NCBI GenBank assembly: GCA_021792135.1
Contig: JAJYVF010000003.1
Span: forward strand, 124,001-188,000
Reading direction: 5' to 3'
Origin: Acidobacteriota bacterium
GTDB taxonomy: Bacteria > Acidobacteriota > Terriglobia > Terriglobales > Acidobacteriaceae
Length of the DNA stretch: 64,000 nucleotides
This document shows positions 3,753 to 26,114 of this stretch, piece after piece (the stretch's first letter is position 1; the number at the start of each line of letters is the position of its first letter). The translations under genes and the position numbers were made by a program. The notes under the pieces were generated by a model. It was not told the origin of the DNA. It did no database searches and saw only the letters and a program-made list of their open reading frames with translations.

Positions 3753-3783
3753 CGAGCTGGTTCTCGGCACCCGGTCAGAAGCC

Positions 3784-8071: not shown

Positions 8072-8077
8072 TGGACG

Positions 8078-8083: not shown

Positions 8084-8172
8084 AGAAAGCGGGCCGCCGG
8101 GCGCAGAGGGGCAGCCCTCCGCATTTCCAGAGCGGCCTTCCTCCCGCCGCCAGGACACACCCTGGTTCCGGG

Positions 8173-8391
8173 TCACTTTCTCCTCAGATAATCGATCAGG
8201 AACTGAACGAAGGTGATGAGCGCGCCGAGGGCGATGGCGAACCCGCGCGCGTTCTGGAAGCGCTCTTCATGTTGGGCGACGCGCCGCTCGATGGCGCCGA
8301 TGCGTCCGGAGTTGCCGTCGCCGAGGAGGGTGCTCATCTGGTTCTTCAGCACGGAGAGGTCGGCGAGGACCTGGGCTTCAAATTCGGTCAT
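8173..8391 (-). CDS. small coiled-coil and membrane-anchor protein, holin-like
   Basis: A 72-residue protein at the downstream end of the phage block. Residues 1-48 are polar with heptad-like spacing (FEAQVLADLSVLKNQM, IERRVAQHEERF). A single hydrophobic segment follows (about 51-66, FAIALGALITFVQFLIDY), ending in RRK. This coiled coil plus C-terminal helix layout resembles XhlA-type holin accessory proteins, but no specific motif proves it. I chose the ATG at 8391; a longer in-frame start at 8451 adds a Pro-rich, unlikely extension. It follows the tail protein gene by 86 bases. Function is inferred from shape and position only. Confidence 0.6.
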   Translation of the reverse strand: MTEFEAQVLADLSVLKNQMSTLLGDGNSGRIGAIERRVAQHEERFQNARGFAIALGALITFVQFLIDYLRRK

Positions 8392-10804: not shown

Positions 10805-10817
10805 CCTGGCCTCCCGG

Positions 10818-11810
10818 CTAAATCAGCGTCATCGGGCTGGGCAGAAAGCTGCGAAAACAGACGACCTGCTCGCCGTCATTTGAATCTGTAACAGGCAGTG
10901 CGCGGAATGTGGCGCCGAGCGCGATCCGTTCGAGCGGGGCGGCGAGAGCCGCCGAGGCTTCCGATGCCCCGCCCAGGGCCTGCAGCCGCGGATAGTGGAA
11001 CAGGATCCGATCGCCCTGTTCACCGGGAATGACGAAGAGCGCGGACCACTCCTGAAAGAAGCTGCCGCCCTCGCGATCGACGAAGCCGGAGATGGGCTGC
11101 ACGCGCATTCCTGTTGCGGGAACTCCGGCAAGCAGCGGCTGCGCCAGCTCGAGACCCGGCGCCGAGCCTGAGGAAACGAGGGATGCCACACGCGCGACGT
11201 TGAACGAGACGCGGCGAATATAGTCGGGATCATTGTTGACCGCCGCCGGGCTGGAGACATAGGCCGCGCAGACGCCGCTGCCTGCGAAGCCGGTCTGGCC
11301 CGTGTAGTCCACATCGACTGTGACCAGGGACCCGGCCGAAAATCCGGCGGTATCGGAGGCCGCGAGGGCCAGGAAAGTTGCCGTCGATCCGGTGGCGAGG
11401 TTCACCGCCGGCACGCCCTTGCTGCCGGATCCGTTGGCCGTGCCCCCGGCCGTGGGCACAATCAGATTCATATGCTGCGAACCGGCGGCCAGCGCCATCG
11501 ACAGCTTGCTCCAGGTCCTGAAGCGAAACGACACGGTGGCGTCGACGGTTTCGCGCACCTGGTACTGGGTTGTGCCGGGGCTGCCGGTAACCAGATTGCC
11601 GAATTTGCTCGTGGATTTGCGGGCGAAGTTCTCGATCCAGCCGAGGTCGATCCAGGGCGAAGGCGGCGCGTCGAGCGAGAACTGTCCACTCACGGAGGGA
11701 TCGAAGACGGTGGGCAGCCGGTGAACGCGATCCACGGGCGCGAAGTAGGCACGCACACAGCGCCCGATGGGAGGCTGCGCGCCCAGTGTTGTGACGGCGG
11801 GTGTGCTCAT
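10818..11810 (-). CDS. phage tail tube-like structural protein
   Basis: A 330-residue Ser/Thr/Ala/Gly-rich protein with few charged clusters, beta-strand-like throughout, consistent with a tail tube or similar structural subunit. Visible segments include SPWIDLGWIENFARKSTSK near the N-terminus and, near 230-270, RVQPISGFVDREGG. The ATG at 11810 overlaps the upstream gene stop as ATGA. Position, after the connector and completion genes and before the large tail protein, is where siphovirus-like tail tube genes sit. I cannot tell tube from another tail subunit by sequence alone. Confidence 0.5.
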   Translation of the reverse strand: MSTPAVTTLGAQPPIGRCVRAYFAPVDRVHRLPTVFDPSVSGQFSLDAPPSPWIDLGWIENFARKSTSKFGNLVTGSPGTTQYQVRETVDATVSFRFRTWSKLSMALAAGSQHMNLIVPTAGGTANGSGSKGVPAVNLATGSTATFLALAASDTAGFSAGSLVTVDVDYTGQTGFAGSGVCAAYVSSPAAVNNDPDYIRRVSFNVARVASLVSSGSAPGLELAQPLLAGVPATGMRVQPISGFVDREGGSFFQEWSALFVIPGEQGDRILFHYPRLQALGGASEASAALAAPLERIALGATFRALPVTDSNDGEQVVCFRSFLPSPMTLI

Positions 11811-12295
11811 TGTTCTCCCTGCTCCTGGAACGCGAACACCATGACTTTGGCGATGCGGCTGAGGCGGTCGCGCAGCGTAACGGCTGGCCCGAACTCGGGC
11901 TCGGACCAGAAAACCATGGTCTGCATGGCTTCGGGCGGATTCCGGGCGTAGTTCATCTTTTGTGCCGAATACGGATACAGAAGCCTGAGCAGCTCGTAAT
12001 CCATCTGCTCCAGAGCGCGGCCGCGGTCAAGGCCCGCATTGGCCTGGGTTCCCACGGTGGAGTACTGAATCTCGCAGGTCATCTCTGCCAGAATCGCGGG
12101 CAGCTGCAGGTCGGCCTGAAGGCCTGTCCAGCTCAGCGTGAACGCATCGAGAATCGGCTGCGCCATCGGGGGCTCGGCGTCCGCCACCAGGATGCCGGGG
12201 CGCGCGACGGCGCGCAGCGTCATGGTGCGCGACGGATTCAGCGCCGCCAGGCGCGTGCGCAGCGTGATGTAAAACGTGTCTTTTGCATTCTGCAT
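11807..12295 (-). CDS. putative tail completion or terminator protein
   Basis: A 162-residue protein with no motif I recognise. It opens MQNAKDTFYITLRTRLAALNPSR, a pattern seen in small tail-terminator proteins whose N-terminal helix is followed by a mixed alpha/beta body. It lies between the connector genes and the tail tube candidate, which fits a completion role. It overlaps the next gene by 4 bases. Upstream there is a 156-base gap with no gene, holding one short AGCGGTCAGG-type repeat. The function is by gene order only. Confidence 0.45.
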   Translation of the reverse strand: MQNAKDTFYITLRTRLAALNPSRTMTLRAVARPGILVADAEPPMAQPILDAFTLSWTGLQADLQLPAILAEMTCEIQYSTVGTQANAGLDRGRALEQMDYELLRLLYPYSAQKMNYARNPPEAMQTMVFWSEPEFGPAVTLRDRLSRIAKVMVFAFQEQGEQ

Positions 12296-12325
12296 AGGTC
12301 ACCTTCAATCAGCAGGGCGCAGAGC

Positions 12326-12342
12326 ACAGAGCTCAGCGGTCA
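12326..12342. repeat. single copy of the AGCGGTCAG-type repeat
   Basis: A short CTCAGCGGTCAGG sequence in the gap between two phage tail genes. It shares its core with the larger copies near 13.6, 14.7 and 29.5 kb. A single copy this short could be chance. Confidence 0.3.
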
Positions 12343-12451
12343 GGTTCTGCTGCTTCTCCCTGGGGCTGCTCAGGCTTCGGCCAGGATTACCCTTCGGGAA
12401 GTTGTCTGCGATGCCGGGGGCTGCTCCGCCCTGGGCACCGGAGCGCGCCGG

Positions 12452-12892
12452 TCACATTGGCCATTCGCCGCTGGCTTCCCGTAACAGCAGGCGGTACAAA
12501 TAGGGCTCGCCCTGCGTTTCCGAAGCGGAGAATGCCTCGATCAGGAACAGCTTGCCCGCAATCACCACACCGGCAGCCCTCACGAAAAGGCACTCTGCGG
12601 AGCTGAGATTCTGCTGGGTTACCTGTACTCTGACCGCGTCCGCGGAGACGAACAGTTCGTATTGCGGCAGCTCGCTCTCCTGCATGGTCGCGCGCAATTT
12701 CCTGAAGACCGCCGGCGAGAGCGGAAGCGAAAGGAAGCCGGGCGCGTCGAGACCAACCTGGCCGGCATTGCTCGTGTCGCCCTGGAGCGGCGGCATCTGG
12801 AGGCACGCTGTGGTTCCGCCGTTTGCGCGGAGCAGAGCCGCGGCGACGCTCCGCGCAGCTCCGCAGGGAATCTGGGTGCTCAGGTCGGCCAT
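12452..12892 (-). CDS. phage structural protein, possible head-tail joining protein
   Basis: A 146-residue protein starting 2 bases after the connector gene stops. It contains GFLSLPLSPAVFRKLRATMQESELPQYELFVSADAVRVQV and then ECLFVRAAGVVIAGKLFLIEAF, an alternation of strands that suggests a small beta-barrel like head-tail stopper proteins. No catalytic residues are evident. The tight spacing with the connector gene supports cotranslation. It may instead be a minor decoration protein. Confidence 0.45.
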   Translation of the reverse strand: MADLSTQIPCGAARSVAAALLRANGGTTACLQMPPLQGDTSNAGQVGLDAPGFLSLPLSPAVFRKLRATMQESELPQYELFVSADAVRVQVTQQNLSSAECLFVRAAGVVIAGKLFLIEAFSASETQGEPYLYRLLLREASGEWPM

Positions 12893-12894: not shown

Positions 12895-13521
12895 TTATCC
12901 CATCCTCACGGAAACCCAGGGCCGGAGCATTGCCTGCACCGTCTCATCGAGGAGAGCGCCGGAGAAATACTGAAGCCACATGGTATCGAGTTTTGCTGTC
13001 TTCACATTCAGCCCTGGCGTGGCCTGGGCATTCTTCACGATCTGCGCGCACGCGCACTTCACGGCGCCGGGCATTGTGGCGAGGCCCGCGGTGTAGGCTA
13101 CCTGCACCTCGTTGTAGGGCAGTCCGAGGATGCTGAGGGGAAAGATCAGCTCGCCGGTATCGGCGACGAAATCGACCGTGGTCGGATCCACGGTGGTCCA
13201 CGCGCCCGGCAGCGAGAAGGCCCACAGCACTTCTTCCTGAACCGGATAGACGGTCTGGCCGCGCCGCGGCCTGGCATAGCGTGCCTGAATCGCGACGAGC
13301 GGCAAGGTCGCGGGGGCAACAGAGACCAGCGGCAGATGGCTCAGGCGCGCCGTCTGCGATCCCTCCACCAGGCGCAGCCGTTCCATGTACTGCGTGGGAT
13401 TCAGGCTGGCCCGGCGGCAGTGGCTGTCAATCAGCGACGAGGCCGCGGTGATCCAGTCGTCGGTGACGTCGGGAGCCAGGCCGTAGGTCTGGTACTCGGT
13501 TGGCTGCAGATAACAGGACAT
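12895..13521 (-). CDS. head-tail connector (gp6-like adaptor)
   Basis: A 208-residue protein placed directly after the major capsid gene. It has the adaptor layout: an N-terminal helical part (VTDDWITAASSLIDSHCRRASLNP), a beta-hairpin middle, and a C-terminal helical part (VKCACAQIVKNAQATPG, LDTMWLQYFSGALLDETVQAML). In HK97-like phages such adaptors dock on the portal and carry the tail. The ATG at 13521 follows AAGGAG at ideal spacing. The call rests on the helical pattern and gene order. Confidence 0.6.
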   Translation of the reverse strand: MSCYLQPTEYQTYGLAPDVTDDWITAASSLIDSHCRRASLNPTQYMERLRLVEGSQTARLSHLPLVSVAPATLPLVAIQARYARPRRGQTVYPVQEEVLWAFSLPGAWTTVDPTTVDFVADTGELIFPLSILGLPYNEVQVAYTAGLATMPGAVKCACAQIVKNAQATPGLNVKTAKLDTMWLQYFSGALLDETVQAMLRPWVSVRMG

Positions 13522-13668: not shown

Positions 13669-14637
13669 CTACCGATCGACCAGCACCTGGTAATGGGCGT
13701 AGTTCGCGCCCTTCACGACCGGCGCGCCGAACTTGACCACCACATGCTGGGAGGCCAGCGAACCGGGCACGCCAAGCTGGAAGACGCGCGGGTTGGGATC
13801 GCTCAGCCAGTGGTATTCGATCAGGTCTTCGGTGACGATGTAGGCGGGCAGGACCGCACTGCCCGATCCCGGAGTGCCGGTGTAGGCCAGCGACCAGTCC
13901 GGAATCAGCGGCAGCTCGCCGGCCTGGGTGGCCAGCATCTTCACGGTGAAGCCGGCGGCGATCTCCCTGGTATTCAGCACCACGTTGAACTCGGACTTCA
14001 TCTCGCGATCGATCAGGTCGAGCAGCACCGGATTGGCGTAGATGGCCGTCGGCCGCACGGCATAGCTGGTATTGGCGCACATCTGCGCGATGGTGGACTT
14101 CAGGCCGTCGGTGATCGAGGCTGTGGTGCCGATGGTCGTCGTGTTGCCCCCGGCGGCGATCTGTCCGGCCACGCCGAAGTATTGCATCGTGGCCGGCGCG
14201 CTCAGCGAGGTGTCGTTGCCGTTCCACAGCGCCACGTCGTGCGTCAGCATTACGCCTTCGATGGTGTCGACGAGATCCTTCGCCTGCAGATAGGCGAACT
14301 GCTTCTGCTGCGCGCCCAGCTCCATGTCGAAGAGGTTGTAGTTGAGCTGCGCCACAATGGCCTTCAGCGGCACGCTGCGTTCCACGCGGGTAGGCGTGAC
14401 CACAGGCGCGACGATGTTGCGCGGATCGACAAAGCCCGCGGTCGAGGGATTGGGAATCGCCGTCTGCTCGAAGTAGCGCGACGGATGCCCGGTGGCCGGG
14501 ACCTGCTTGATGCGCTGGCCGAAGATGTTCCGGCGGCGCACGATGTCGAGGATCTCGGTCTGGTACTGGGGAACTTCAATGGCTCCGGGACCGATGAAGT
14601 CCGCTGCGGCATGGATATCGAGGAAATTGGCTGTCAT
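13669..14637 (-). CDS. major capsid protein, HK97-like
   Basis: A 322-residue protein in the capsid position, after scaffold and before connector. It contains features of HK97-fold capsid proteins: an N-terminal segment with EILDIVRRRNIFGQRIKQVP, a long central helix region (FAYLQAKDLVDTIEGVMLTHD), a loop describing nucleotide-like ANPVLLDLIDREMKS, and a C-terminal QHVVVKFGAPVVKGANYAHYQVLVDR. No N-terminal delta domain is present, which agrees with a separate scaffold gene upstream. The ATG at 14637 follows AAGGAAG; a longer frame to 14697 lacks such a site. Confidence 0.75.
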   Translation of the reverse strand: MTANFLDIHAAADFIGPGAIEVPQYQTEILDIVRRRNIFGQRIKQVPATGHPSRYFEQTAIPNPSTAGFVDPRNIVAPVVTPTRVERSVPLKAIVAQLNYNLFDMELGAQQKQFAYLQAKDLVDTIEGVMLTHDVALWNGNDTSLSAPATMQYFGVAGQIAAGGNTTTIGTTASITDGLKSTIAQMCANTSYAVRPTAIYANPVLLDLIDREMKSEFNVVLNTREIAAGFTVKMLATQAGELPLIPDWSLAYTGTPGSGSAVLPAYIVTEDLIEYHWLSDPNPRVFQLGVPGSLASQHVVVKFGAPVVKGANYAHYQVLVDR

Positions 14638-14711
14638 GACTTCCTTTCGTGAAGAAGAGTTCGTGAGAAAACAAAACGCCGACGAGCGAGTGAGCAAGCT
14701 GGCGAGTTAGT

Positions 14712-14846: not shown

Positions 14847-15275
14847 TCAGCCCAGCACGCCCGCGCGCAGCAGTTGTGCCTTGACCACGATGCGCTGCTC
14901 GATGCTCAGCCCGTTCAGCGCCGCATCCACCGCGCCCGCCTCGAGGGAATCGAGCGAGGTGATTCCCTGCTTGGCGAGAAACTGCGCCGTGCCGGCGGAA
15001 ACTGTCCTGCGCAGCGAACCCGTCTGGGTCCCGGTCTGCGCCTGCAGCTCCGCAATCTGCTGCTCCGCGGCTTCAAGTTTCTTCTTGAGCTCGGTTTCGC
15101 GGCTGCTCTCCACAGCGGCCACGATCTTCCGCACCTCGCCGCTGCGCTCGCTCTCACGCTCTTCAAGCAGGGCTACGGTGCGCTCAAAGAGCGAGGCCGC
15201 GGCTTCGATGCGAGCCTCCATGCGCTCCATGCTTTCTCTCAGAGCGCCCACGTATTCGCCTGTCTGGTTTTCCAT
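14847..15275 (-). CDS. putative capsid scaffolding protein
   Basis: A 142-residue protein. About residues 8-100 are strongly helical and charged with coiled-coil spacing (ESMERMEARIEAAASLFERTVALLEERESERSG, then ETELKKKLEAAEQQIAELQAQ). A short globular C-terminus ends RIVVKAQLLRAGVLG. Coiled-coil proteins between protease and capsid genes are usually scaffolds. The ATG at 15275 follows AAGGA and the gene overlaps the end of the protease gene by 37 bases, which suggests coupled expression. The role is by shape and position. Confidence 0.6.
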   Translation of the reverse strand: MENQTGEYVGALRESMERMEARIEAAASLFERTVALLEERESERSGEVRKIVAAVESSRETELKKKLEAAEQQIAELQAQTGTQTGSLRRTVSAGTAQFLAKQGITSLDSLEAGAVDAALNGLSIEQRIVVKAQLLRAGVLG

Positions 15276-15898
15276 CTCAGTTCCTTTCTCCTGTCATTGG
15301 TTGGAACGGCGGCGCCGGCTCCATTCCGGCAATTTCTGTTTGCGTCCGCTTCTGTCCTGGCTCCGGCAACGACGCGTGGCGCCACCGACCGGCAGCGCTG
15401 CGGCACCAGCTCAAAGGACGTGTTGCGGTAGGCCGCCTTGTCGCGCAGCAGGATGGCTGCTCCGGTGAAGGTGGCCCGGGTCAGTGTCCAGATCTCCGCG
15501 CGCATATCCTCGACGTGGGCGTCGGCCAGCTCCCAGGACATTCCCATGGTGCCGGGCAGGCCTTGCCGCACCTGCCGCGCCACCTCGGGGAAGTCCTTCG
15601 CGTAGAGATAGCCGGCGACGCGCAGCCGCGTGCCCTCCACGTCGGCCTGGGTGATGACGCCGCACTTGCGCCGCGCATCGTGGCCGTCCCAGGCCGGCGC
15701 GTAATCCACCGCCATGCCCAGCAGCGAGGGCAGCGCCGCGAGCGCCGCTGCGCGCGTCAGGATCACCCGATGGCCGCGCGCTCCCGACGGCGGTTTGGTG
15801 CTGGGCTCGTCCACCAGCGTCAGCACGCCGGTGAAAGGCGCGCGGTTCGGATGTCCTGCCACCTCCGGCAACGTGACTGCCATGGCCTGCAGTTTCAT
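15239..15898 (-). CDS. putative prohead maturation protease
   Basis: A 219-residue protein between portal and scaffold. The N-terminal half reads as a protease-like domain: FTGVLTLVDEPSTKPPSGARGHRVILTRAAA, then DYAPAWDGHDARRKCGVIT. The segment TMGMSWELADAHVEDM resembles the active-site strand of phage head proteases in which a serine sits in a GMSWE or GLSFE context. The C-terminal 50 residues are basic and low in structure. It overlaps the portal gene by 4 bases (ATGA). Catalytic assignment is tentative. Confidence 0.5.
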   Translation of the reverse strand: MKLQAMAVTLPEVAGHPNRAPFTGVLTLVDEPSTKPPSGARGHRVILTRAAALAALPSLLGMAVDYAPAWDGHDARRKCGVITQADVEGTRLRVAGYLYAKDFPEVARQVRQGLPGTMGMSWELADAHVEDMRAEIWTLTRATFTGAAILLRDKAAYRNTSFELVPQRCRSVAPRVVAGARTEADANRNCRNGAGAAVPTNDRRKELRWKTRQANTWAL

Positions 15899-17214
15899 TC
15901 GCTCTCCCGTTCTTCCTGAGTCTCGTGATCTGTAACTGCTATTGTGGCGTGAACCTCCCTTTCAGTTATCAGCGGCGCCAGTCCGCGCATGGCCCGCACC
16001 TCGTTCACCGTCAGCACGCCGGCCGCCAGCAGCGCGGTCTGCATCTGCACTTCCTGCATCTCGTCGGTGGCGTCCAGATCGTTGAAGACGAACTCGAACT
16101 CCGGCCATCCCAGGCGCTTGGCGAAGAGGTCGCGCGTCAGGTGCTCGGCGATCAGCCGCGCCAGCGGCACGATGGCGCTGCGGAAGGCCTCGTCCAGCAG
16201 CTCCGCCGCGGTCGAGCGGTTCACGTCCTGCTCGAGGCCAAGCAGCACCGGCGGCAGCGAAAATGCGTTCGCCACCATGCGGATCAGGAACTCCTGCCAG
16301 GAGAGACGCAGGTCGGCGTCGGTGCCGGTGGCGAAGCGCAGGACTTCGGGTTTCTGCTCGGTGCTGAGCAGCGGAACTCGCCCCGTGCCCTCGATCTCGT
16401 CCTGCCACCAGCGGATCAGCCGCTCATGCTGGGCCGGGGTGGTTTCGTTCAGCCACAGCGCATACTGCACGACTGCATTGCTGGCCAGCTTGCCCGCGAA
16501 ACGATGCGCGCTCAGGAAGGCGTTGACCGTCTCGAAGGCGACCTCCAGCGGGCCCAGGCCGAAGGGCGTGTGGCTGCGCGGATTCATGCGCACGTAGATG
16601 AGTTGTTGATCCTGGAGCGGAATCAGGGAACCGGTTCCCGCCAGCCCTGTCGCCTGCGCAAAGCGCGCGGAATCCGGGCTACCGTCCCACTGCGGGTCGA
16701 TGCGGATCGTCGCGCCGTCCACCGGCCACAACTCGAAGGGCTTCCCTGGATTGCCGGTCAGCTCCATTTCGATGGCGCCGAAGCCCCCGACCAGCGCGTC
16801 CTCGATGGTCTGCTCCATCAGGGTGCGAAAGGAATCCGAGGCATTGGGGAATTCCAGGGTGTGGCGCAGGATTCGCGCGCGCTTGACCGCGAAAGCCACC
16901 TTCTCCGGATCGTGGTGGCGCTTCAGGCGCACCTGCCAGTCCATGGCCGCGACACGATCCTTGATGAGGTTGATCGCGCGCCGCACCACCGGCGTTTCTG
17001 CAAACTTGCGCAGATTGGCGGGCGTGGGTTTGGGCAGCGCCCTCGCCGGGAGCGCGCAGGGCGCGAGCACCGAGGGCAGCGCCAGGGTTCTGCGCTGTCC
17101 GGGCGGCGCCGGCTCCTCCCTGCGCGCGGCTCCGGGGTCCCCGGCGCGTCGACGCGCTGGGGTGGCGGCGCCCAGCAGCGCCAGAGCGTGCTTCCATGGT
17201 TTTCTGATGTTCAC
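15895..17214 (-). CDS. phage portal protein
   Basis: A 439-residue portal protein, the dodecameric channel through which terminase pumps DNA. Portal-like segments are KFAETPVVRRAINLIKDRVAAMDWQV near the N-terminus, EQTIEDALVGGFGAIEME, LIYVRMNPRSHTPFGLGPLEVAFETVN, and the C-terminal FSLPPVLLGLEQDVNRSTAAELLDEAFR followed by AAGVLTVNEVRAMRGLAPL, all typical of HK97-type portals. The start is GTG at 17214 behind AAGGAG. A longer frame to a TTG at 17256 would begin inside the terminator hairpin tail and is rejected. Confidence 0.8.
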   Translation of the reverse strand: MNIRKPWKHALALLGAATPARRRAGDPGAARREEPAPPGQRRTLALPSVLAPCALPARALPKPTPANLRKFAETPVVRRAINLIKDRVAAMDWQVRLKRHHDPEKVAFAVKRARILRHTLEFPNASDSFRTLMEQTIEDALVGGFGAIEMELTGNPGKPFELWPVDGATIRIDPQWDGSPDSARFAQATGLAGTGSLIPLQDQQLIYVRMNPRSHTPFGLGPLEVAFETVNAFLSAHRFAGKLASNAVVQYALWLNETTPAQHERLIRWWQDEIEGTGRVPLLSTEQKPEVLRFATGTDADLRLSWQEFLIRMVANAFSLPPVLLGLEQDVNRSTAAELLDEAFRSAIVPLARLIAEHLTRDLFAKRLGWPEFEFVFNDLDATDEMQEVQMQTALLAAGVLTVNEVRAMRGLAPLITEREVHATIAVTDHETQEERESE

Positions 17215-17248
17215 GTCGTCGTTGCTCCTTCCCTTCCGTTCCCGGTTG

Positions 17249-17279
17249 CAAAACAAAAGGCACGGCGTTTTGCCGTGCC
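17249..17279 (-). terminator. rho-independent terminator after the DUF3037 gene
   Basis: On the minus strand GGCACGGC and GCCGTGCC form an 8-bp perfect stem with a five-base loop, followed by TTTTGTTTTG. It separates the terminase/HipA/DUF3037 genes from the portal gene and downstream head genes. Confidence 0.8.
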
Positions 17280-17307
17280 TCCGCTCTCCAACTGCTGCCG
17301 GCTTCTG

Positions 17308-18144
17308 CTACACGCGCAGCTCCCGCTTCGCCGTCTCGGCGACCCGCTGCAGATCGTTCACTGTCAGCACCCGGATCCGCTGCTCTTCCATCGTCTCCAC
17401 GCCAAAGTGATACTGCTCCACGAAGTCCTCCTCGCCGGCCACCTCGCCGCTTTCGTCCCGGATCGGCTCGACAACCGCCGTCAGCTCCAGCTCGGCGTTT
17501 TCCACCCGGGCCACGCCCTCGCGCAGCGCGGGCGCGCTGAAGGCCAGCACCTTGGCCAGCTCTACATCGCTCGCGAGCGAGACGGCGTGAAACATCCGCA
17601 CCAGCCCGTTCGGCCGGTAGCCGCAGTCGATCTTCAGCGGATCGCCGGGCCGCGTATAGGCCGAGGCGGCGATGCGCCGGCGCATCAGATCCCACACTCC
17701 CGCATGCTCGAAGTGCGTCCGCATGCGGCGCGCGATCGCCTGGCGGCCACTGACGGTTTGCCGTGCCCGCTGCTTTCGCGGCTCGACATGGAGGCGCATC
17801 AGCTGATCCATCTCTGCAGCCATGTTCTCGGCCAGACAGGCCTTCGGCTCGGTCATCTGCAGCAGGTGCGAGAACGAGTCCTCGATGGTCTTCATCAGCG
17901 GCGGCGTGTCCGAGAACTGCTCCCCGAGCCGCCGCCGCATCTCCATTTCCATCGCCTCGAGCATCTCGGTGTCGGCGTCGGGATCGACGCAGCGCACCCG
18001 CGACCAGTCCCGCGTGAAGCGGACCTGGGCTTCCTGCGGCCGGCCCGCCTCGCGCAGCAGCACGCCGATATTCACGAATTCGTTCTTCACCGGATCCGGC
18101 ACGTACCGCACCAGGAAGAATTCGCACTCCAGCCGCTCGTTCAC
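17308..18144 (-). CDS. DUF3037 family protein
   Basis: A 278-residue protein with the DUF3037 opening: EFFLVRYVPDPVKNEFVNIGVLL at about residues 8-30, followed by RFTRDWSRVRCVDPDADTEML. The middle contains a basic stretch (RKQRARQTVSGRQAIARRMRTHFEH). Function of the family is unknown; it is often found next to HipA-like kinase genes. Here it overlaps the HipA-like gene stop as GTGA (start GTG at 18144), so the pair is cotranslated. A strong terminator follows 29 bases after it. It is not a known virion protein and looks like a passenger in the head gene block. Confidence 0.8.
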   Translation of the reverse strand: MNERLECEFFLVRYVPDPVKNEFVNIGVLLREAGRPQEAQVRFTRDWSRVRCVDPDADTEMLEAMEMEMRRRLGEQFSDTPPLMKTIEDSFSHLLQMTEPKACLAENMAAEMDQLMRLHVEPRKQRARQTVSGRQAIARRMRTHFEHAGVWDLMRRRIAASAYTRPGDPLKIDCGYRPNGLVRMFHAVSLASDVELAKVLAFSAPALREGVARVENAELELTAVVEPIRDESGEVAGEEDFVEQYHFGVETMEEQRIRVLTVNDLQRVAETAKRELRV

Positions 18145-19013
18145 ATGATCCGTCCAGCTACACTATCGTCCCGGCCCGGCGCGGCGAACTGCCCTCGCTG
18201 CGCAGTGGCGAGAGTTTGGTTCCAGTTCGGGAACGGCTGCCGCGATGAATTCCGGAAAGCGGTAATGAGCTCCCGCACTGCCGAACGCCGCCCGACCAGC
18301 TTCTCCACCAGTCCCTCGACTGATGCCACGTCCCCCTCGTACCACTCCGGGGGAAGCGTCTCCGCAATTTCCCAGACCCCCTGCGGCTCAAGCTGTTCGA
18401 TCGCGCTCAGCCAGGGCTCGAAGCTCTCCCACCCGGTCACGTCGCGATAGACAGGGTTGCGGGCGTACACGCCGCGCAGCGGCGCATCCACAAAACGCCA
18501 ATCTCCCGCGTTGAAGCAGAAACCCTGGTCGATGAACGTGGCGCTGTAGCGCCGCTCCCGTCCTTTGCGATAGAACAGCGCCTGCCGCCCGTTGGCGTTG
18601 CACGTCCACTTGTCGAAGGCCAGCATCCCGGCGAATTCCCGCATATTCCGCACCTCGACGAGCTGCTCCTCGGGCAGATAATCGGCGACGTGCCCGGGCA
18701 TCAGTCCGCCGACGAGCTGCGAGCCGAAGTGGAGCCCGGGGCGGCAGCGCTCCCGCCGCTGCCCGAGGTCCATCTCCAGTTCCCCCGTTCGCTCGATGAG
18801 CCACGGTGTAACCTCGACCACGTCGCAGTGCGGAACCGTCAGCCCCACCAGCGCGGCAAGGCGCGTGGCCAGCAGCTCGTTCGGCAAAACGCGCAGATGC
18901 TGGGGGTTGTTCTGGAACTTCACCACCCAGGCGTTGCCGTCGTCGCCGAGCATCAGGTGGCTCTGCGCGCCGCCCCGCATGCGCCGGATCTGCTGGATCG
19001 CCAGGACCGCCAC
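18141..19013 (-). CDS. HipA-like kinase family protein
   Basis: A 290-residue protein resembling the HipA-like kinase family that partners DUF3037. The N-terminus carries MRGGAQSHLMLGDDGNAWVVKFQNN (about 13-37), a glycine loop followed by the ATP-binding lysine in VVKF. The C-lobe has AFDKWTCNANGRQALF (about 132-147) and FIDQGFCF (about 160-167) at the positions of the catalytic and metal-binding motifs. Where HipA-type kinases usually read N-x-D, this sequence reads N-A-N, so the catalytic aspartate may be missing. The start is GTG at 19013 behind GGAGG. It lies 21 bases after terminase and overlaps the DUF3037 gene. Confidence 0.75.
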   Translation of the reverse strand: MAVLAIQQIRRMRGGAQSHLMLGDDGNAWVVKFQNNPQHLRVLPNELLATRLAALVGLTVPHCDVVEVTPWLIERTGELEMDLGQRRERCRPGLHFGSQLVGGLMPGHVADYLPEEQLVEVRNMREFAGMLAFDKWTCNANGRQALFYRKGRERRYSATFIDQGFCFNAGDWRFVDAPLRGVYARNPVYRDVTGWESFEPWLSAIEQLEPQGVWEIAETLPPEWYEGDVASVEGLVEKLVGRRSAVRELITAFRNSSRQPFPNWNQTLATAQRGQFAAPGRDDSVAGRIM

Positions 19014-19034
19014 GTTGCCTCCGAATTCCCAATC

Positions 19035-20522
19035 CTACTGCAAGCGGGTAAGCCGCTCATCCCGAACCGCCAGGGCAATGGCCATCGCCAGCACGCAGTC
19101 GTCGTGCTCGCCGGCCTGCGCTCCTGGTTCGCCGTTCACCTGGCGCACAAAGCTGCGACACTCGCGCAGCAGCCGTTCGCTCGCAAAAAGCTGCGGCGAA
19201 TCCACCAGCGCCGCTCCCAGCTTGCCGATCATCGGCCGCCTGGTCCGGGTCGAGGTCAGCCAGCCATCCTTCCCATCGTCGGCACGGTACAGATGTTCGT
19301 ACCGCAAGACGCCATCGAGATACGCCAGCACGCCGGCCCCATGGTTGTTGCGCTCGACCACCAGCAGCGCATTACCGTATTCGCGGGCGAGCGCGGCTGC
19401 CTCCTGTGCCGCCTCGAACGGCGTCAGGTGCGCCTGCAGCTCCGCGCACTGGAAGCCTGTTTCGAGATCCAGAACCTGGGCCGCCGTATAGTCCCCCTGC
19501 GTTCCGCCACCGGCCGGATCAAGCGCCACCAGATACCGGCGTCCCTTCTGCGGCGGCAGCCAGATGCGCAGTTCTCCCCTCCGCCGCACCTCCGCGGGAT
19601 CGATTACCTCCCGCAGCCGTGCGTCGATGGCGGCGGTTTCGAAGACGCATTCGCCACTGGCCAGAAAACATTCGGTCGCATCCTCGGCATATTCCTGCTT
19701 CGCCAGGCCGCGGAAGGTCTCCTGAAGCTGCCGCCGGTAACCGATCTTCTCCGGGCTCAGACCGTATTTCTCCATCAGTTGCCGTTCCGTTCCGGTCAGC
19801 GACGGTTCCGCCACCGGCTCGGCGGCGTACGCCTCCTCCAGCCACCACGGAAAGAAGTGCCGCACCGTGCCGGTCCTGTCCGCATCCTTCCACTCCTGCC
19901 AGAAGCATCCCGAAGCTCCCATCGGCGTCGACTCCATCACCAGTTCCCCCCAGGGCGACAGCGTGGCGCGCAGGCCGCAGAGTGTTTCCGCCGGATCGCC
20001 CGGCCAGCGTGCCAGCTCCGTGCAGTGCAGGTTGGTGATGGTCAGCCCACGTCCTGCATTGCGATCCCCCGCCGTTTCGATCATGTATTCGCTGTCGAGA
20101 GCGGGGATCGCGATCCTCCGCGCCGTCGCCTTTGCGGACTTCAGGGCCCCTTCGCGCAGCGGCTCCGGCAGGTTCGCGAGGAACCGGTGCACGATGCGGA
20201 AGATCGCCTCCGCCGCCTCCTGCGTATGCGCCACCTCCACTGTCACCGTTCCCGGATGCGTAATGGTCTTCAGAAAGAACCATCCCGCAATCCAGGTGGT
20301 CACCCCCATCTGGCGCGCCTTCAGCACGATGTTCCTCTGGCGCGCCCTTTCTGCGTAGGCCAGCTGCGCCCGGTTGGCCCTGAGATCGACGTTTTGCCCC
20401 ATTTTGTTTCTGATCTTCAGCGCCTTCCCGGTTAAGTGCAGCGCGTCGTCCCCGCCTCGATCCAGCATTCCCCCCAGGCGGACAAGGTCTTCCCTCGTCC
20501 CGTTTCCCCACAAATCTTCCAT
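19035..20522 (-). CDS. phage terminase large subunit
   Basis: TerL is the ATPase-nuclease that packages DNA into the capsid. The 495-residue protein has an ATPase domain with a Walker A-like KARQMGVTTW at about 68-77 and a likely acidic Walker B in LHCTELARWP (about 165-174). The nuclease domain shows ALDPAGGGTQGDYTAAQV (D335, D344), VVERNNHG (E390) and GEHDDCVLAMAIAL (D474/D475), the usual RNase H-like acidic set. Both domains look intact. No small terminase gene is seen next to it. It begins 6 bases after the giant fibre gene, without its own Shine-Dalgarno. Confidence 0.85.
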   Translation of the reverse strand: MEDLWGNGTREDLVRLGGMLDRGGDDALHLTGKALKIRNKMGQNVDLRANRAQLAYAERARQRNIVLKARQMGVTTWIAGWFFLKTITHPGTVTVEVAHTQEAAEAIFRIVHRFLANLPEPLREGALKSAKATARRIAIPALDSEYMIETAGDRNAGRGLTITNLHCTELARWPGDPAETLCGLRATLSPWGELVMESTPMGASGCFWQEWKDADRTGTVRHFFPWWLEEAYAAEPVAEPSLTGTERQLMEKYGLSPEKIGYRRQLQETFRGLAKQEYAEDATECFLASGECVFETAAIDARLREVIDPAEVRRRGELRIWLPPQKGRRYLVALDPAGGGTQGDYTAAQVLDLETGFQCAELQAHLTPFEAAQEAAALAREYGNALLVVERNNHGAGVLAYLDGVLRYEHLYRADDGKDGWLTSTRTRRPMIGKLGAALVDSPQLFASERLLRECRSFVRQVNGEPGAQAGEHDDCVLAMAIALAVRDERLTRLQ

Positions 20523-20528: not shown

Positions 20529-23500
20529 TCAGTAGGCATACCAGTTGTAGTCGGGCCCGCAGACCAGGGTGCGTTTGCCCGCCGTGGTGATGGCCAGTGT
20601 CTGGGCAGAGACCCCGTTGTAATTGATGTTCTGCGAGCTTACCGTTTGCAGTGTCACCGCGTTGGCCGACGTGTCGGACTTGATGATGGTCAGCTCCAGC
20701 CCCGTGGGCGATGCCTTGTCAGGGAGCGGCGTATAGCAGCTCGGGAGAGTGAGGGTCTGCGTCCCGCTCGCCGCATTGGCGACCACGTTCCGGTTGGCCG
20801 CGGTCAGTGTCAGCGTGGAGGCCGTGTTGATGACGGTGCTCAGCGCCAGGCCGCCGTTCGAGCGGATCGTCCCCTGATACGTGACGTTGAAGAACGGATT
20901 GCTCCCGGAGAAGTGCGCCTGAAACGCGTCTCCCTGGTAGCCCGTGTACATCTGTGCCGAATACGCCGGATAGCTCGAAGCCGCCGCGACCGGCGTGGAC
21001 CACACGCGCGGCACCGCGCCGGTCGGGTCGTTGATGTTCGCGCCCCCGCTCGAAAAGCCGGTGACGTTGGCGGGCTCCAGCGCCTGGTAGTAATTGCCGC
21101 AGCCGGTCAGGTGATGAATACTCGCGTAGGTCGGCGGATTCCCCGAAGTTCCGGCGTAGGTGATCCAGTTCACGCCGGCCCCCATACCCAGGCAGTCCAC
21201 ATCGGCGACCAGCAGGTTATTCGTAACCGTGGGTGCGACATAAATCAGGTTCGCTGCCGGAAAGCTGGTCAGGTCCGGCCACTGGATGTGTCCGCCGTGG
21301 ATGGCGATGCCGTTGGCGCCCACATAGAAGCCCGCCACTGCCGGGCTGTCGACATAGGTGTCTGTCCACACGCTTCCGGCGCCTCCGGTGTCGTAGATGA
21401 CATAGCTGGTCGCGTACGAGGCATTGGCCGCCGAGCCCGAGCTCGCATTGTTGATGCAGGGCGCCGTGGTGCAGGTGTAGGGGTAACCAAAGCCATGGAT
21501 CCCGTATCCGGTGTTGCCGGTCCCCTCGTTATAGATCGCAGCCGTCAGCGCATTCCGCACCACAACCTTGTCCAGATCGCTGTCGATCGCGGTCTTCTCG
21601 ATGTGAATGCCGTACGCCGGCCGACTGGCCGGGGTGAAGACTGCGCTGGAATAGCTCACCGTCGTATTGCGGACAAGGAAATTCGCCTGGTGCCCCGCGG
21701 CTGTATTCTCCTCGCCCAGCAGAATGCCCTCCGCCGTCGTATCGTTCGCCGTGATGTTATCGAGCAGCGCGCCCCGGAACCACTGGAGCTCGAACCCATG
21801 CGTGGCATTGCCCTGGGCCAGGAGATTGAGGTCCTTGAAAGTGCAACCCTGCGCCTGCGCCGTATTGCCCAGAAAGAACACATCTCCGCCCAGCGAAGCC
21901 GGCACGGTCAGCGTAGTCGCGATCTGCGGGCTGTCGGCGTTCATGGTCGTGCCGCCCGAGCCCAGCACGCTGACGCAAGCCCCGTTCGCAGGCTCGTTCA
22001 TGGTGGCGCTCACCGTAAAGGTCCCCGGACCCAGATGGATCGTCTGGTTCTGGCCGCTTGTATTCGCCTGCTGGACAGCCGCATTCCAGGCCGCATTCAG
22101 CGAGGGATAGGTGACTCCGTCGACGGTGATTTCCCCGTTGATCGTCGCCCCGCTCAGGCCTCCCTGGGCGCGCAGGGATCCGGGCAGCGCCAGATTGCCC
22201 GAGGTATCGAACTTCGAAGTGATTCCATTGCAGGTGAAGGAGAGACCGCCACCCGCGGCTCCCGCCAGGCCGACGGTGCAATAAGGGGCCTGGCCGCCCT
22301 GCTTTGTGGAGCCGGACGTCCATTGCCACGCGGAGGTGCTGGGCTTGTACGCAAGGACATCCTCGCCGCCGGCGGCATTCTGGTGCGTCAGCACCTGCGA
22401 CCACGCATTCCAGGAAGCACAGTAGGGGGAGCAATTGACATCGACGGCGCCCATGTTGGTTCCATTCGGCGCACCGAAACTGGGCAGGGAAAGCTCGAGG
22501 CCATTGGCAAAAGGGCCGGAAAGTACATACCCGTAGGGAGTCATCATCTGACCCTGCCCGATGACGTAGGGTGTTCCTCCCGCCGGAAAGTTCTGATACA
22601 GGAGAGGGCTGTTGGCGTTCGAATCGTAGTTCATGAAGCCGGCCCTGCCGTAAATCATGGCAGAGCGGCCCTCAACCCCCTTGCCCGCAAACTGGTAGGA
22701 GCCGGAATGGGTTCTGAGGCCGCGAAAGCCCACGTTGAAGTAATGGGGTATCTCGACCTTGTCGCCGGTGCTGAACGTGCCCATCAGCTGATCGGTCGCA
22801 ATGGAGCTGCCGTCGAGCGCCCCGGTAGCGGGATTCCACACATTCTGGGTGTGGGTCATGGGGTAGATCGCGTAGGGGTTGGAGGGCGTCACGGCAACCG
22901 TGATAGAGGTAATGCCCGAGCCTCTGTTCGCTACTGCGCAACCGTTCAGCGAGCCTCCCGATGCGGTGCCGGTGATGTAGAGGACTGGCGGTGTGGCTCC
23001 CGTGTTCACCGTGTAGGTCAACTGAGGAGGAAAGACCAGGCCGCCCGTAGATTGTGTTGCGTAGAGGTAGCCGGAGCCGCCGCTGGCCGTGCAGGAGGTA
23101 ACAGAGCCACCGCTCACCGTCGCCGTCACTGTGCCCCCGCTGCCCATCTGCCCATAAGCGCGGGTCGCATGATTATTGAAGGACATTACATAAGCGGCGT
23201 TGCCCGGCACGTTGAACATGATGGGGAAAACCGGACGGATGACGTTGCCGAGACCGGTGTATCCCGCGCCGAAGCCCTGAGCGCCGGTTGCGCCCCCTAC
23301 CCAGTCAGCCTGCGTGGTGAAGCCGTAGCCCGTGAGGCCGCCCTGCGCTACATAGTCTCCGGACGAATAGGGAGCATCCAGCACGGCAAAGGTGATCGTG
23401 TTGCTGGCCGTGCTGACTGCCGTCAGTGGCTCGCAGTCCCAGGTCGGAGCGCCCTGTTCAAAGATGCAGGCAGGCTTCGAGGTGGAGAAACCGGAAGCGT

Positions 23501-25358
23501 TCGTCACCGGCACGGTGACGTTGATGGCCGGGTAGATGTTGGCCTGCGCCGTCGCCGTGCCGCTGTCGGTGGTGTAGCTGGTCACCGGACAGGTGATCCC
23601 GCTGATGGTCAGGCACTGCACCTCGAACTGGGTGCTGGTGGCTCCTGTTCCGATCACCGAGAACACCTGGTTGTTCAGGAAGGTGGCGTGGGTCAGGCCG
23701 GTAAACTTGACGGGGCTGCCGATCTGGGCAAAGGAGTTGCTGACCACCGTCACGATGACGATGTTGCCGTTCGGATTGCTGACCACCTGGTAGCCGGTGA
23801 CGGTCTCGGGGCCGATCACGCTGGTGGTCGAAGCGGTGGTGGTGGTGTAGACGGAATCCCCGTAGCTCGAATCCCAGTCGGCTCCCGCCCCGTAGGCAAT
23901 CGCTCCGTTGGTGATGTTGCCGAAGCTGGAGATGTAGCCGCTGCTGTCGGCATGCGTCAGGTCGATCATCTCCAGGCGAGCGCCGATCTGATTGGCCGCG
24001 CCCTGGGTCGTAGTCACGCTGAGCACATTGCAGGGCGCGGTGCAGGGCTGAGGGTAGGAGGTGCCGGACTGCGCCGTGATGGACTGGAGGGTGCCTTCGA
24101 AGACGCTGCCGGATTCTTCATGCCAGAAGGCGTCCTCGTTGCCCTCGTCCTGTCCGGTGTCGATTCCGCCGTAGCTGGTATCGAACTCCAGAATGCCGAT
24201 GTGGTCGCCGTTCGAATATCCCTGAAAGTTGTTGGAGACAGCGTCAAAGCTGGTCGGTGTATACATCAGGCTGCCCACCGACAGGCTGGTGCTGCCCATC
24301 TGGTCTGGCGAGAAGCTGCGCCCGCCCGCCAGCAGATTCGTCTGCACCTGCATGCCGGGGCCGGTATGCGAAGACGCTGCCTGCGGACCCCAGGTGACGT
24401 TCTGCACGAAGGAGGGACCGGAGGAGAACCTCATCCACTCCGGGTTGTTGATCGAGGCCGGGTCGATGCCCGCATTGCAGATCCACTGCGGCGCACCCCA
24501 GCGGTCGTCGCGTATGCAACCCATCGGAGCGCTGGCCGACGGGCTTCCGCGCAGCCCGGACCAGAAGAAGCTGCCGCCCCACGGCTGCGCTTCGGTCTGC
24601 GCATACGTTGCCGGAGCTACGACCTGGCAGGCGTATGGGTACGTCTCGCATTCCGCCAGCGACACTTTCATTCCATCGTTGGTCGCCGTTCCGGACTGCC
24701 AATGCTCGGCGTAGAGGGCACCCTCCATCTGCTGCGCATTCAGCGGACCCGACAACGTGCCGCCGGCGAGAGGCAGACTCAGCGCTGCCAGCTGATCGGC
24801 GTAGTGCTTTGTGGCCGCCTCGGCACCCGACGTGGGATCCGCGCTCAGGGTCAGCGGCCCGGTCAGCGAGCCGCCGGCCAGCGGCAGGTAAGAGCTGCTG
24901 ATGGACTCTACGGCGCTGTTCACATACTCGGGGGTTACTGACTGCACGGCTACGGCGGAGGGCTCGAGCTGCGCACGCACCGACGCGATGGAGGCGGTTC
25001 CCGAAGCGGGCACCACCCAATACTCCTTGTTCACGGTGCCGTCGCTCAGGTGGTAAACAGCGGTGTAATAGCTGCCTGCGGGCAGCGCCGCCGCGTTCGG
25101 GGTAAGGTTCACGCTGACAAATCCGTCGGCCCCGATAGCCGTGCTCAGGCTCCCCGCGGCTACAGCCTGATTCTGGGGTGTGGTGAAGGCGGACCAGCTG
25201 ATCAGCAGGGTTCCGCTCGCGGGTGTCCCGTCAGCGCGGTACACCGCTCCCTGTACGGTCGTGGTGCTGACCTGTGCGACGGCGCGGGGCGGCACCACAG
25301 CCATCACGGCCAGGACCAGCGATACAGAGATTACCCACCAGGTTCTCCGTTCCATCAT
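20529..25358 (-). CDS. giant exported fibre-like protein with beta-helix region
   Basis: A 1609-residue Gly/Ser/Thr/Ala-rich protein. The N-terminus is a Sec signal peptide: MMERRTWW, a hydrophobic core (VISVSLVLAVMAVV), and a likely cleavage after AVA. A beta domain follows (TVQGAVYRADGTPASGTLL ... HLSDGTVNKEYWVV). Around 140-205 it has two SYLPLAGGSLTGPL / SLPLAGGTLSGPL repeats, the hallmark of phage tail-fibre shafts. Around 1090-1390 a right-handed beta-helix of pectate-lyase type is likely (TIHLGPGTFTVSATMNEP, then many short strands). The ATG at 25358 follows AAAGG; longer starts would begin in the terminator. It lies 6 bases upstream of terminase. It may be a surface adhesin or a captured tailspike. 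Confidence 0.7.
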   Translation of the reverse strand: MMERRTWWVISVSLVLAVMAVVPPRAVAQVSTTTVQGAVYRADGTPASGTLLISWSAFTTPQNQAVAAGSLSTAIGADGFVSVNLTPNAAALPAGSYYTAVYHLSDGTVNKEYWVVPASGTASIASVRAQLEPSAVAVQSVTPEYVNSAVESISSSYLPLAGGSLTGPLTLSADPTSGAEAATKHYADQLAALSLPLAGGTLSGPLNAQQMEGALYAEHWQSGTATNDGMKVSLAECETYPYACQVVAPATYAQTEAQPWGGSFFWSGLRGSPSASAPMGCIRDDRWGAPQWICNAGIDPASINNPEWMRFSSGPSFVQNVTWGPQAASSHTGPGMQVQTNLLAGGRSFSPDQMGSTSLSVGSLMYTPTSFDAVSNNFQGYSNGDHIGILEFDTSYGGIDTGQDEGNEDAFWHEESGSVFEGTLQSITAQSGTSYPQPCTAPCNVLSVTTTQGAANQIGARLEMIDLTHADSSGYISSFGNITNGAIAYGAGADWDSSYGDSVYTTTTASTTSVIGPETVTGYQVVSNPNGNIVIVTVVSNSFAQIGSPVKFTGLTHATFLNNQVFSVIGTGATSTQFEVQCLTISGITCPVTSYTTDSGTATAQANIYPAINVTVPVTNASGFSTSKPACIFEQGAPTWDCEPLTAVSTASNTITFAVLDAPYSSGDYVAQGGLTGYGFTTQADWVGGATGAQGFGAGYTGLGNVIRPVFPIMFNVPGNAAYVMSFNNHATRAYGQMGSGGTVTATVSGGSVTSCTASGGSGYLYATQSTGGLVFPPQLTYTVNTGATPPVLYITGTASGGSLNGCAVANRGSGITSITVAVTPSNPYAIYPMTHTQNVWNPATGALDGSSIATDQLMGTFSTGDKVEIPHYFNVGFRGLRTHSGSYQFAGKGVEGRSAMIYGRAGFMNYDSNANSPLLYQNFPAGGTPYVIGQGQMMTPYGYVLSGPFANGLELSLPSFGAPNGTNMGAVDVNCSPYCASWNAWSQVLTHQNAAGGEDVLAYKPSTSAWQWTSGSTKQGGQAPYCTVGLAGAAGGGLSFTCNGITSKFDTSGNLALPGSLRAQGGLSGATINGEITVDGVTYPSLNAAWNAAVQQANTSGQNQTIHLGPGTFTVSATMNEPANGACVSVLGSGGTTMNADSPQIATTLTVPASLGGDVFFLGNTAQAQGCTFKDLNLLAQGNATHGFELQWFRGALLDNITANDTTAEGILLGEENTAAGHQANFLVRNTTVSYSSAVFTPASRPAYGIHIEKTAIDSDLDKVVVRNALTAAIYNEGTGNTGYGIHGFGYPYTCTTAPCINNASSGSAANASYATSYVIYDTGGAGSVWTDTYVDSPAVAGFYVGANGIAIHGGHIQWPDLTSFPAANLIYVAPTVTNNLLVADVDCLGMGAGVNWITYAGTSGNPPTYASIHHLTGCGNYYQALEPANVTGFSSGGANINDPTGAVPRVWSTPVAAASSYPAYSAQMYTGYQGDAFQAHFSGSNPFFNVTYQGTIRSNGGLALSTVINTASTLTLTAANRNVVANAASGTQTLTLPSCYTPLPDKASPTGLELTIIKSDTSANAVTLQTVSSQNINYNGVSAQTLAITTAGKRTLVCGPDYNWYAY

Positions 25359-25410
25359 CGATCGCCTTTCGCCGTTTCTGTTCGGCATATTCCTCATTCC
25401 TGGAATTCGC

Positions 25411-25438
25411 ATAGTGTCCTGAGGCTGCGCGCTGTCAG
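25411..25438 (-). promoter_or_regulatory. possible promoter for the fibre and terminase genes
   Basis: On the minus strand CTGACA is followed by 16 bases and CACTAT. This would start a transcript about 45 bases before the fibre gene, just after the bidirectional terminator. The -10 is weak. Confidence 0.3.
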
Positions 25439-25486
25439 GTGCTGTTCGGGGTTCCTCAGCACTGACTCCCAACCTCGATCCAAAAG

Positions 25487-25526
25487 AAAAGGGGAACACC
25501 GGATGGGTGTCCCCCTTTTTCTTTTT
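25487..25526. terminator. bidirectional rho-independent terminator
   Basis: AAAAGGGG-A-ACACC pairs with GGTGT-C-CCCCTTTT around a five-base loop. On the plus strand CTTTTTTC follows; on the minus strand TTTTCTTTTG follows. On the minus strand it ends the transcript of the sigma-like and zinc-finger genes before the fibre gene. Confidence 0.85.
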
Positions 25527-25625: not shown

Positions 25626-26114
25626 TTAGTTTCCGGCCTCCCCTCTTGACAGTTTTTCTGCATTGGGGTTGAGCAGCCCATATTCGAGGAAAAGCCGGGT
25701 CAGCCGGTCGAGCGCTCCTCCATAAATTCGCATCACGGATCGCACGCTTTCCCCGGTCAGAGCCGCTACCTCGAGTGTCGAGTAGTCCTCGAGCGCAATA
25801 TGCGCCACCACCTGCTGCGAGCGCGCGTCCAGCTGCCGCAGGCATTTCTCCACGTCGAAGATGAAGATGACCCTGTCCTCGAAGCTCTGCATCCGGTAAC
25901 TCGATGCCCGGCCGCGGAACACCATGCTTCCCAGCAGGCAGGGTGTACGGCCGACCTCCATCGACGTCTGCATATACCGGCGCAGCAGCCCCACGGCGTG
26001 TTTGCGGTAGAAGGCCAGTCCTTCGATGGGCCGGGGCCGCGCAACCGGCAGACTGGTGTCCGCCACCGCAAAGGCCGCAGCGATGAAGCACGGCATTGCC
26101 CCCGCGGCGCTCAC
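25626..26114 (-). CDS. sigma-70 region 4-like DNA-binding protein
   Basis: A 162-residue protein whose C-terminal half (about 94-140) reads like sigma region 4: RQLDARSQQVVAHIALEDYSTLEVAALTGESVRSVMRIYGGALDRL, a helix-turn-helix of the kind that binds -35 boxes. No region 2 is present, so it is not a full sigma factor. The N-terminal half has a basic segment (AFYRKHAVGLLRRYMQTSMEVG). It probably regulates the phage block, as a late gene activator or accessory factor. The start is GTG at 26114, overlapping the zinc-finger gene stop as GTGA. A terminator follows it. Confidence 0.55.
   Translation of the reverse strand: MSAAGAMPCFIAAAFAVADTSLPVARPRPIEGLAFYRKHAVGLLRRYMQTSMEVGRTPCLLGSMVFRGRASSYRMQSFEDRVIFIFDVEKCLRQLDARSQQVVAHIALEDYSTLEVAALTGESVRSVMRIYGGALDRLTRLFLEYGLLNPNAEKLSRGEAGN

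What the first reader, a model, noticed from the sequence alone, without database searches (positions are those of the whole stretch)
17249..19034. HipA-like kinase and DUF3037 pair embedded between terminase and portal, closed by a terminator
The pair overlaps by GTGA and is followed by a strong terminator at 17249-17279, so it is a separate end to the terminase transcript, splitting a head gene operon. DUF3037 with a HipA-like kinase is a known two-gene association of unknown role. Its place inside the packaging module suggests a toxin-antitoxin, a superinfection defence, or a control on packaging. This is inference from context.
Basis: partly seen in the sequence, partly recalled or inferred. 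Interest (0 to 1): 0.7.

Follow-up and report, generated by a model that had tools for sequence, protein, structure and literature searches.

The report
HipA–DUF3037 pair inside an ancient prophage
A two-gene kinase/partner module related to a known bacterial anti-phage toxin–antitoxin system sits between the DNA-packaging genes of a very old, host-fixed prophage remnant of soil Acidobacteria, and it often survives there after the phage genes are lost, which suggests the host keeps it for its own use.

Summary
A HipA_2 kinase gene and a DUF3037 gene overlap by GTGA between terminase and portal, with a terminator after them. That terminator recurs in relatives with compensating base changes.

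The surroundings are not an ordinary prophage. In 41 of 41 named-genome loci where terminase and portal share a block, the pair lies between them. The capsid gene is single-copy in 75 of 100 Acidobacteriaceae genomes (one more has a remnant), usually at one site beside purE/purK. Its tree tracks rpoB, it is under purifying selection, and no integrase or replication gene was found. Three genomes of another order carry the same cluster in the same gene neighbourhood.

Elsewhere in the class the pair persists without phage genes: HipA is in 248 of 299 genomes, capsid in 79. At least five Acidobacteriaceae genomes keep only the pair at this site.

Best reading: a divergent HipAD-type (PDC-M66-type) defence/toxin–antitoxin module, carried in and outliving an ancient domesticated prophage. 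The kinase has Asn where the catalytic Asp is expected, so its activity is in doubt. Known before: the element as 'prophage cluster 153' (Eichorst 2018), and HipAD as a defence system. I found no report joining them or noting fixation. Particles, toxicity and defence are untested.

The parts
18141..19013 (-). HipA_2-type kinase (290 aa), first gene of the pair; Asn at the catalytic-Asp position (FDKWTCNANGRQ)
   Evidence: PF20613 3.4e-9, PADLOC PDC-M66A 2.2e-6; kinase fold matches to PI4K-II, CtkA, HipA, HipT; residue comparison
17308..18144 (-). DUF3037 protein (278 aa), second gene of the pair, presumed antitoxin/partner
   Evidence: PF11236 2.8e-21, PADLOC PDC-M66B 8e-11
18141..18144 (-). 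GTGA overlap of hipA stop and duf3037 start
17256..17282 (-). intrinsic terminator ending the terL-hipA-duf3037 transcript
   Evidence: conserved, covarying stem
19035..20522 (-). large terminase, ATPase and nuclease motifs conserved in 28 homologues
   Evidence: phrog_2 2e-21; motifs
15895..17256 (-). portal (likely true start GTG at 17214)
   Evidence: PF04860 1.6e-53; start
15239..15898 (-). prohead-protease-like protein (name inferred from position)
   Evidence: conserved in order in homologous loci
14847..15275 (-). scaffold-like protein (name inferred from position)
   Evidence: conserved in order
13669..14697 (-). putative major capsid protein (inferred from position and conservation; no profile hit, fold model failed)
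12895..13521 (-). head-tail adaptor
   Evidence: phrog_442 2.2e-16
8477..12892 (-). four further conserved cluster genes (12452-12892, 11807-12295, 10818-11810, 8477-10804), function unassigned
   Evidence: order conserved; no profile hits
20529..25499 (-). 1656-aa fibre-like protein (name inferred), variable between genomes
   Evidence: no profile hit; variable conservation
25626..26114 (-). sigma-70 region 4-like regulator of the element
   Evidence: PF08281 3.7e-6; syntenic
26710..27423 (+). divergent Cro/C1-type HTH regulator; remnant left beside purE in genomes that lost the cluster
   Evidence: PF13443 3.6e-5
6375..8176 (-). flanking host genes purK (profile) and purE-like (name inferred from position)
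   Evidence: PurK domains; next to the cluster in 33 of 40 named loci

Best explanation
The pair is a divergent member of the HipAD/PDC-M66 kind: a HipA_2 kinase toxin/effector with a DUF3037 partner that restrains it. It is written from a terL-hipA-duf3037 transcript that ends at a conserved terminator. It lies inside a phage head-gene cluster that is no longer an ordinary prophage: a host-fixed, vertically inherited element of Acidobacteriaceae, probably already present in the common ancestor of two orders of the class. Packaging genes were lost repeatedly while the pair was often kept, so the pair most likely serves the host (phage defence or growth-arrest switching) rather than the packaging machine. 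Shown here: gene identity, order, conserved terminator, single copy, shared site, tree agreement with rpoB, purifying selection, pair-only relics. Inferred: kinase restrained by DUF3037, defence role, and the direction of change (loss of phage genes around a retained pair). In doubt: whether this kinase is active, as the catalytic Asp is Asn.
For: Pair identity and PDC-M66 matches. Published tests of relatives: deleting the kinase abolishes defence, deleting DUF3037 is toxic (PMC12548924); a kinase-residue mutant loses defence (PMC13092281). TerL-HipA-DUF3037-Portal order in 41 of 41 named-genome loci and 75 of 78 capsid-positive genomes with HipA within 16 kb. One capsid copy per genome, only in this family plus 3 genomes of another order. 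Same site in several genera. Tree agreement with rpoB: Mantel r 0.88 (phage genes) and 0.92 (pair), p 0.001; 9-10 of 21 splits shared against 0.2 by chance. dN/dS 0.17 hipA, 0.19 duf3037, 0.09 capsid, 0.12 portal. Pair-only relics at the site and full clusters in f7 whose HipA groups with f7 pair-only HipA. Conserved terminator.
Against: Catalytic-Asp position is Asn in 160 of 181 loci scored, including this one (loci are partly redundant), so classical HipA toxicity may be absent. The match to PDC-M66 models is partial and weak (2e-6, 8e-11) while the same genome holds a canonical pair elsewhere (4.5e-59, 5.7e-75). Some clusters lack the pair and some genomes lost both. No expression, toxicity or defence data.
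Confidence: 0.58

Rival explanations
1. The kinase has lost catalysis and the pair is now a nucleotide-binding regulator or adaptor (pseudokinase plus partner), kept for a host or element function unrelated to toxicity.
For: Asn at the catalytic-Asp position in nearly all copies of families f1, f2 and f7, while Asp is kept in other families, in outgroup HipA_2 and in the canonical second copy; the ATP-site Lys and DFG-like Asp stay invariant; strong purifying selection.
Against: Some copies within the family carry Asp (L019/L229, L031, L036-L040, L042), which suggests the position is not fixed as dead; D-to-N kinases can keep weak activity (general knowledge). Residue equivalence rests on sequence alignment; the model is poor in this loop.
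Confidence: 0.22
2. The pair controls DNA packaging or particle production of the element, for example as a growth-arrest or dosage switch linked to terL.
For: Constant place between terL and portal, shared transcript end, present in nearly all clusters.
Against: Pair retained without any packaging genes in many genomes; clusters without the pair keep intact-looking TerL and portal (G591, L361, L362, L364).
Confidence: 0.1
3. The pair was a resident chromosomal locus first, and phage genes came to flank it on both sides later, in two lineages or in a common ancestor.
For: Pair is far more widespread than the capsid (248 against 79 of 299) and keeps conserved neighbours without phage genes in other families.
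Against: Phage genes lie on both sides in the same order in two orders of the class (L321, L332, L333); a lone HTH regulator of the element sits next to the pair in phage-free f7 genomes (L328, L329, L331) and next to purE in phage-free Acidobacteriaceae, which looks like loss.
Confidence: 0.2
4. It is an ordinary active temperate phage of Acidobacteriaceae that integrates at one preferred site and carries a defence moron.
For: Called active prophage cluster 153 in PMC5900883 and Terriglobales proviral group (ii) in PMC11924767; capsid homologues 68-71% identical on 74-214 kb viral contigs.
Against: No integrase or replication gene found in the cluster; exactly one copy per genome in most of a family; trees track the host; no match to the capsid or DUF3037 in 50,697 phage records.
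Confidence: 0.1

Closest known systems
HipAD / DS-6 / PDC-M66 (HipA kinase + DUF3037 anti-phage system)
   Same: Two adjacent co-oriented genes, HipA-like kinase then DUF3037; PADLOC PDC-M66A and B both match
   Different: Distant subfamily with partial model matches; Asn at the catalytic-Asp position; fixed at one locus inside a phage head cluster. A canonical PDC-M66 pair is separately present in the same genome (L002)
Prophage cluster 153 of Acidobacteria (Eichorst 2018, PMC5900883); Terriglobales proviral group (ii) (PMC11924767)
   Same: Cluster 153 covers the same regions: T. roseus NC_018014 150-180 kb overlaps L190, KBS 89 scaffold 5 60-90 kb overlaps L173. Group (ii) is linked to it through related Koribacter and Terriglobales proviruses
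   Different: There described as likely active prophages; in the passages I read, no mention of the pair, single-site inheritance or host-tracking trees
Gene transfer agents (RcGTA-like clusters)
   Same: Compact phage structural cluster, mostly vertical inheritance, repeated loss (compare PMC10883770, PMC11841831)
   Different: No sequence link to a known GTA tested; no particle or DNA-transfer evidence; carries a HipA/DUF3037 pair
HipBA / HipBST toxin-antitoxin systems
   Same: HipA-family kinase fold (4pu3, 3dnu, HipT 8ezr among structural matches)
   Different: DUF3037 partner in place of HipB or HipS

Membership tests
HipAD / PDC-M66 | HipA_2 kinase gene directly followed by DUF3037 gene | tested here: met
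HipAD / PDC-M66 | Full-length match to PDC-M66 models | tested here: inconclusive
   Partial and weak (2.2e-6 over 26-140; 8e-11 over 8-190); canonical copy in the same genome scores 4.5e-59 and 5.7e-75
HipAD / PDC-M66 | Catalytic residues of an active HipA kinase | tested here: inconclusive
   Lys32 and DFG-like Asp162 kept, catalytic-loop Asp is Asn141 by sequence alignment
HipAD / PDC-M66 | Kinase toxic alone, neutralised by DUF3037; protects against phage | not testable with these tools
   Published for relatives only (PMC12548924, PMC13092281)
Gene transfer agent | Phage-derived head and packaging genes in one cluster with conserved TerL motifs | tested here: met
Gene transfer agent | Vertical inheritance at a stable site, host-congruent trees, purifying selection | tested here: met
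Gene transfer agent | No integrase or replication module | tested here: met
   None found by Pfam/PHROGs; many cluster genes have no profile, so this is absence of detection
Gene transfer agent | Particles packaging random host DNA and transferring it | not testable with these tools
   Needs culture work
Active temperate prophage | Integrase and sporadic, host-discordant distribution | tested here: not met

The most novel reading that the evidence does not exclude
The cluster is an unrecognised gene transfer agent (or other working viriform) of Terriglobia, at least as old as the split between two orders, with a built-in HipA/DUF3037 module that either arrests producing cells, protects the population, or stabilises the element, and that the host repeatedly keeps after the particle genes are lost.
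Probability: 0.3. Interest if true: 0.87.

Novelty: new variant of a known kind. Interest (0 to 1): 0.7.

Why it matters
Acidobacteriota are dominant soil bacteria, and I found no report of gene transfer agents in them. A head-gene cluster fixed across a family that includes cultured genera (Terriglobus, Edaphobacter, Granulicella, Acidipila) makes that testable. The locus also gives a natural experiment on how a defence or toxin-antitoxin module outlives the prophage that carries it, and on what a HipA kinase with an altered catalytic loop does.

Tried and rejected
Packaging control as the main role: rejected because the pair persists without packaging genes. Ordinary moron of an active phage: disfavoured by single copy, single site and host-tracking trees. 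Catalytic Asp-to-Asn as a mark of phage-embedded copies: rejected, since phage-free f2, f7 and f1 copies have Asn too. Confirming the capsid by fold: the model failed (pLDDT 37), no PDB sequence match and no convincing PHROG match, so 'capsid' stays positional. Solved structures by sequence for HipA and DUF3037: no significant match. INPHARED phages: no DUF3037 or capsid match and one weak HipA match. IQ-TREE failed on the thread count, so FastTree was used. The original HipAD paper cited by PMC13092281 was not identified in the library.

Full report
Observation. The minus strand of the window reads terL (19035-20522), hipA-like (18141-19013), duf3037 (17308-18144), terminator (17256-17282), portal (15895-17256, likely start 17214). 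Profiles support each call: PF20613 3.4e-9, PF11236 2.8e-21, phrog_2 2e-21, PF04860 1.6e-53. HipA and DUF3037 overlap by GTGA. PADLOC names the pair PDC-M66A/B, weakly.

Terminator. Hairpin-plus-T-run sites occur within 150 nt after DUF3037 in 44 of 123 homologous loci, about 1 expected from shuffles; after TerL 2 of 99 and after HipA none of 129. These loci are partly redundant. Twenty aligned hairpins show full pairing and compensating changes at 4 of 8 pairs; they were chosen for having a hairpin. So the terL-hipA-duf3037 transcript has a selected end before the portal. How the portal is then transcribed is not shown; only about 40 nt separate terminator and portal start.

The element. The cluster runs from 8477 to about 25.5 kb, with a sigma-like and an HTH regulator beyond. 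Host genes flank it: purK and purE-like on one side, a GFO/IDH-type oxidoreductase and a tgt-like gene (read by eye) on the other. GC of the cluster (0.65) equals the flanks (0.63-0.65). No integrase or replication gene was found, though many genes have no profile. TerL motifs are conserved in 28 homologues. The capsid call is positional: fold prediction and profile searches failed.

Distribution. In 396 genomes of the phylum the capsid model hits 35 of 44 genomes of this family and none elsewhere, always once. In 299 class genomes it hits 79: 76 in this family (one, G596, a 49-residue remnant) and 3 in family f7 of another order. HipA hits 248 of 299. I count 100 family members: 75 with both, 14 with HipA only, 10 with neither, 1 remnant. 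Some of the 14 HipA-only hits are partial clusters (G602, G624) or lie at other loci. Record titles name Terriglobus, Edaphobacter, Granulicella, Acidipila, Terracidiphilus, Silvibacterium and others.

Position of the pair. In 41 of 41 named-genome loci with terminase and portal in one block, HipA and DUF3037 lie between them. Of 78 full-capsid genomes, 75 have HipA within 16 kb on the same contig; 26 of these have a permuted gene order with the capsid about 10 kb away, and in examples read (L219-L221, L344) the TerL-HipA-DUF3037-Portal block is intact. Exceptions: G591 has other genes between TerL and portal, G019 has the pair on a separate contig, G648 is split over contigs, and 3 of 32 viral-collection loci have TerL directly followed by portal.

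Inheritance. For 24 genomes, distances from the phage-gene tree and pair tree correlate with rpoB (0.88 and 0.92, p 0.001) and share 10 and 9 of 21 splits, 0.2 expected; a few supported conflicts exist. Within the genus dN/dS is 0.09 (capsid) to 0.26 (terL), 0.17 for hipA and 0.19 for duf3037, against 0.06 for rpoB. Synonymous sites are fairly diverged, so these values are approximate. purE/purK follows the cluster in 33 of 40 loci with room to see it.

Relics and depth. G296, G336, G328, G632 and G676 keep only HipA and DUF3037 between the oxidoreductase gene and the flanking host genes. G391, G435, G383 and G304 keep only the HTH and/or sigma-like gene near purE, G280 none. In f7, G475, G470 and G590 carry the cluster around the pair, while relatives have the pair alone, or pair plus HTH gene, often with the same neighbours (a SLT/LysM transglycosylase gene upstream, three host genes downstream). 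The same transglycosylase gene flanks the cluster in G014 of this family. HipA of the f7 cluster genomes groups with f7 pair-only HipA (clade support 0.95), so recent transfer from this family is unlikely. Loss of phage genes around a retained pair is the simplest reading; assembly around a resident pair remains possible.

The kinase. The predicted fold (mean pLDDT 71, weak in the catalytic loop) matches PI4K-II, CtkA, Fam20, HipA and HipT, best Z 8.6. By sequence, Lys32 and Asp162 are invariant but the catalytic Asp position is Asn141; Asn occurs in 160 of 181 loci and in almost all f1, f2 and f7 copies, while Asp is seen in other families, outgroups and in a canonical PDC-M66 pair on another contig of the same genome.

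Known. HipA plus DUF3037 is a validated defence module (DS-6/HipAD, PMC13092281; standalone module in Retron-Sda1, PMC12548924, where the kinase is needed for defence and loss of DUF3037 is toxic). The element overlaps prophage cluster 153 of PMC5900883 and is probably related to proviral group (ii) of PMC11924767. My searches of the open library found no description of it as host-fixed or as a GTA; subscription papers and preprints were not covered.

Verdict. Function of both pair and cluster is untested.

Noticed in passing
L002 681-1481 and 1483-2337 (G000 contig C21): A second, canonical PDC-M66 pair in the same genome (4.5e-59, 5.7e-75) with the catalytic NPDR motif intact.
   Followed up: partly
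L365-L368: Capsid homologues 68-71% identical on 74-214 kb viral contigs; near them are polynucleotide kinase and RNA ligase genes (L366) or helicase and exonuclease genes (L365), but no TerL or portal homologue, hinting at capsid exchange with large phages.
   Followed up: partly
L346 12613-14063: In G591 a TonB-like and a 23S_rRNA_IVP four-helix gene sit between TerL and portal in place of the pair.
   Followed up: partly
L361, L362, L364: Viral-collection contigs with TerL directly followed by portal, no pair.
   Followed up: partly
window 13669-14697, 3' side: Terminator-like hairpins also follow the capsid gene in 34 of 124 homologous loci (1 expected).
   Followed up: no
window 2223-6163: Three long ORFs (2223-3794, 3775-4437, 4286-6163) conserved beside purEK across the family and partly the class, without any Pfam or PHROG match.
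   Followed up: no
L288 6231-8168; L229 1-753: A SLT/LysM lytic transglycosylase gene borders the locus in several families; a link to lysis is possible but untested.
   Followed up: no
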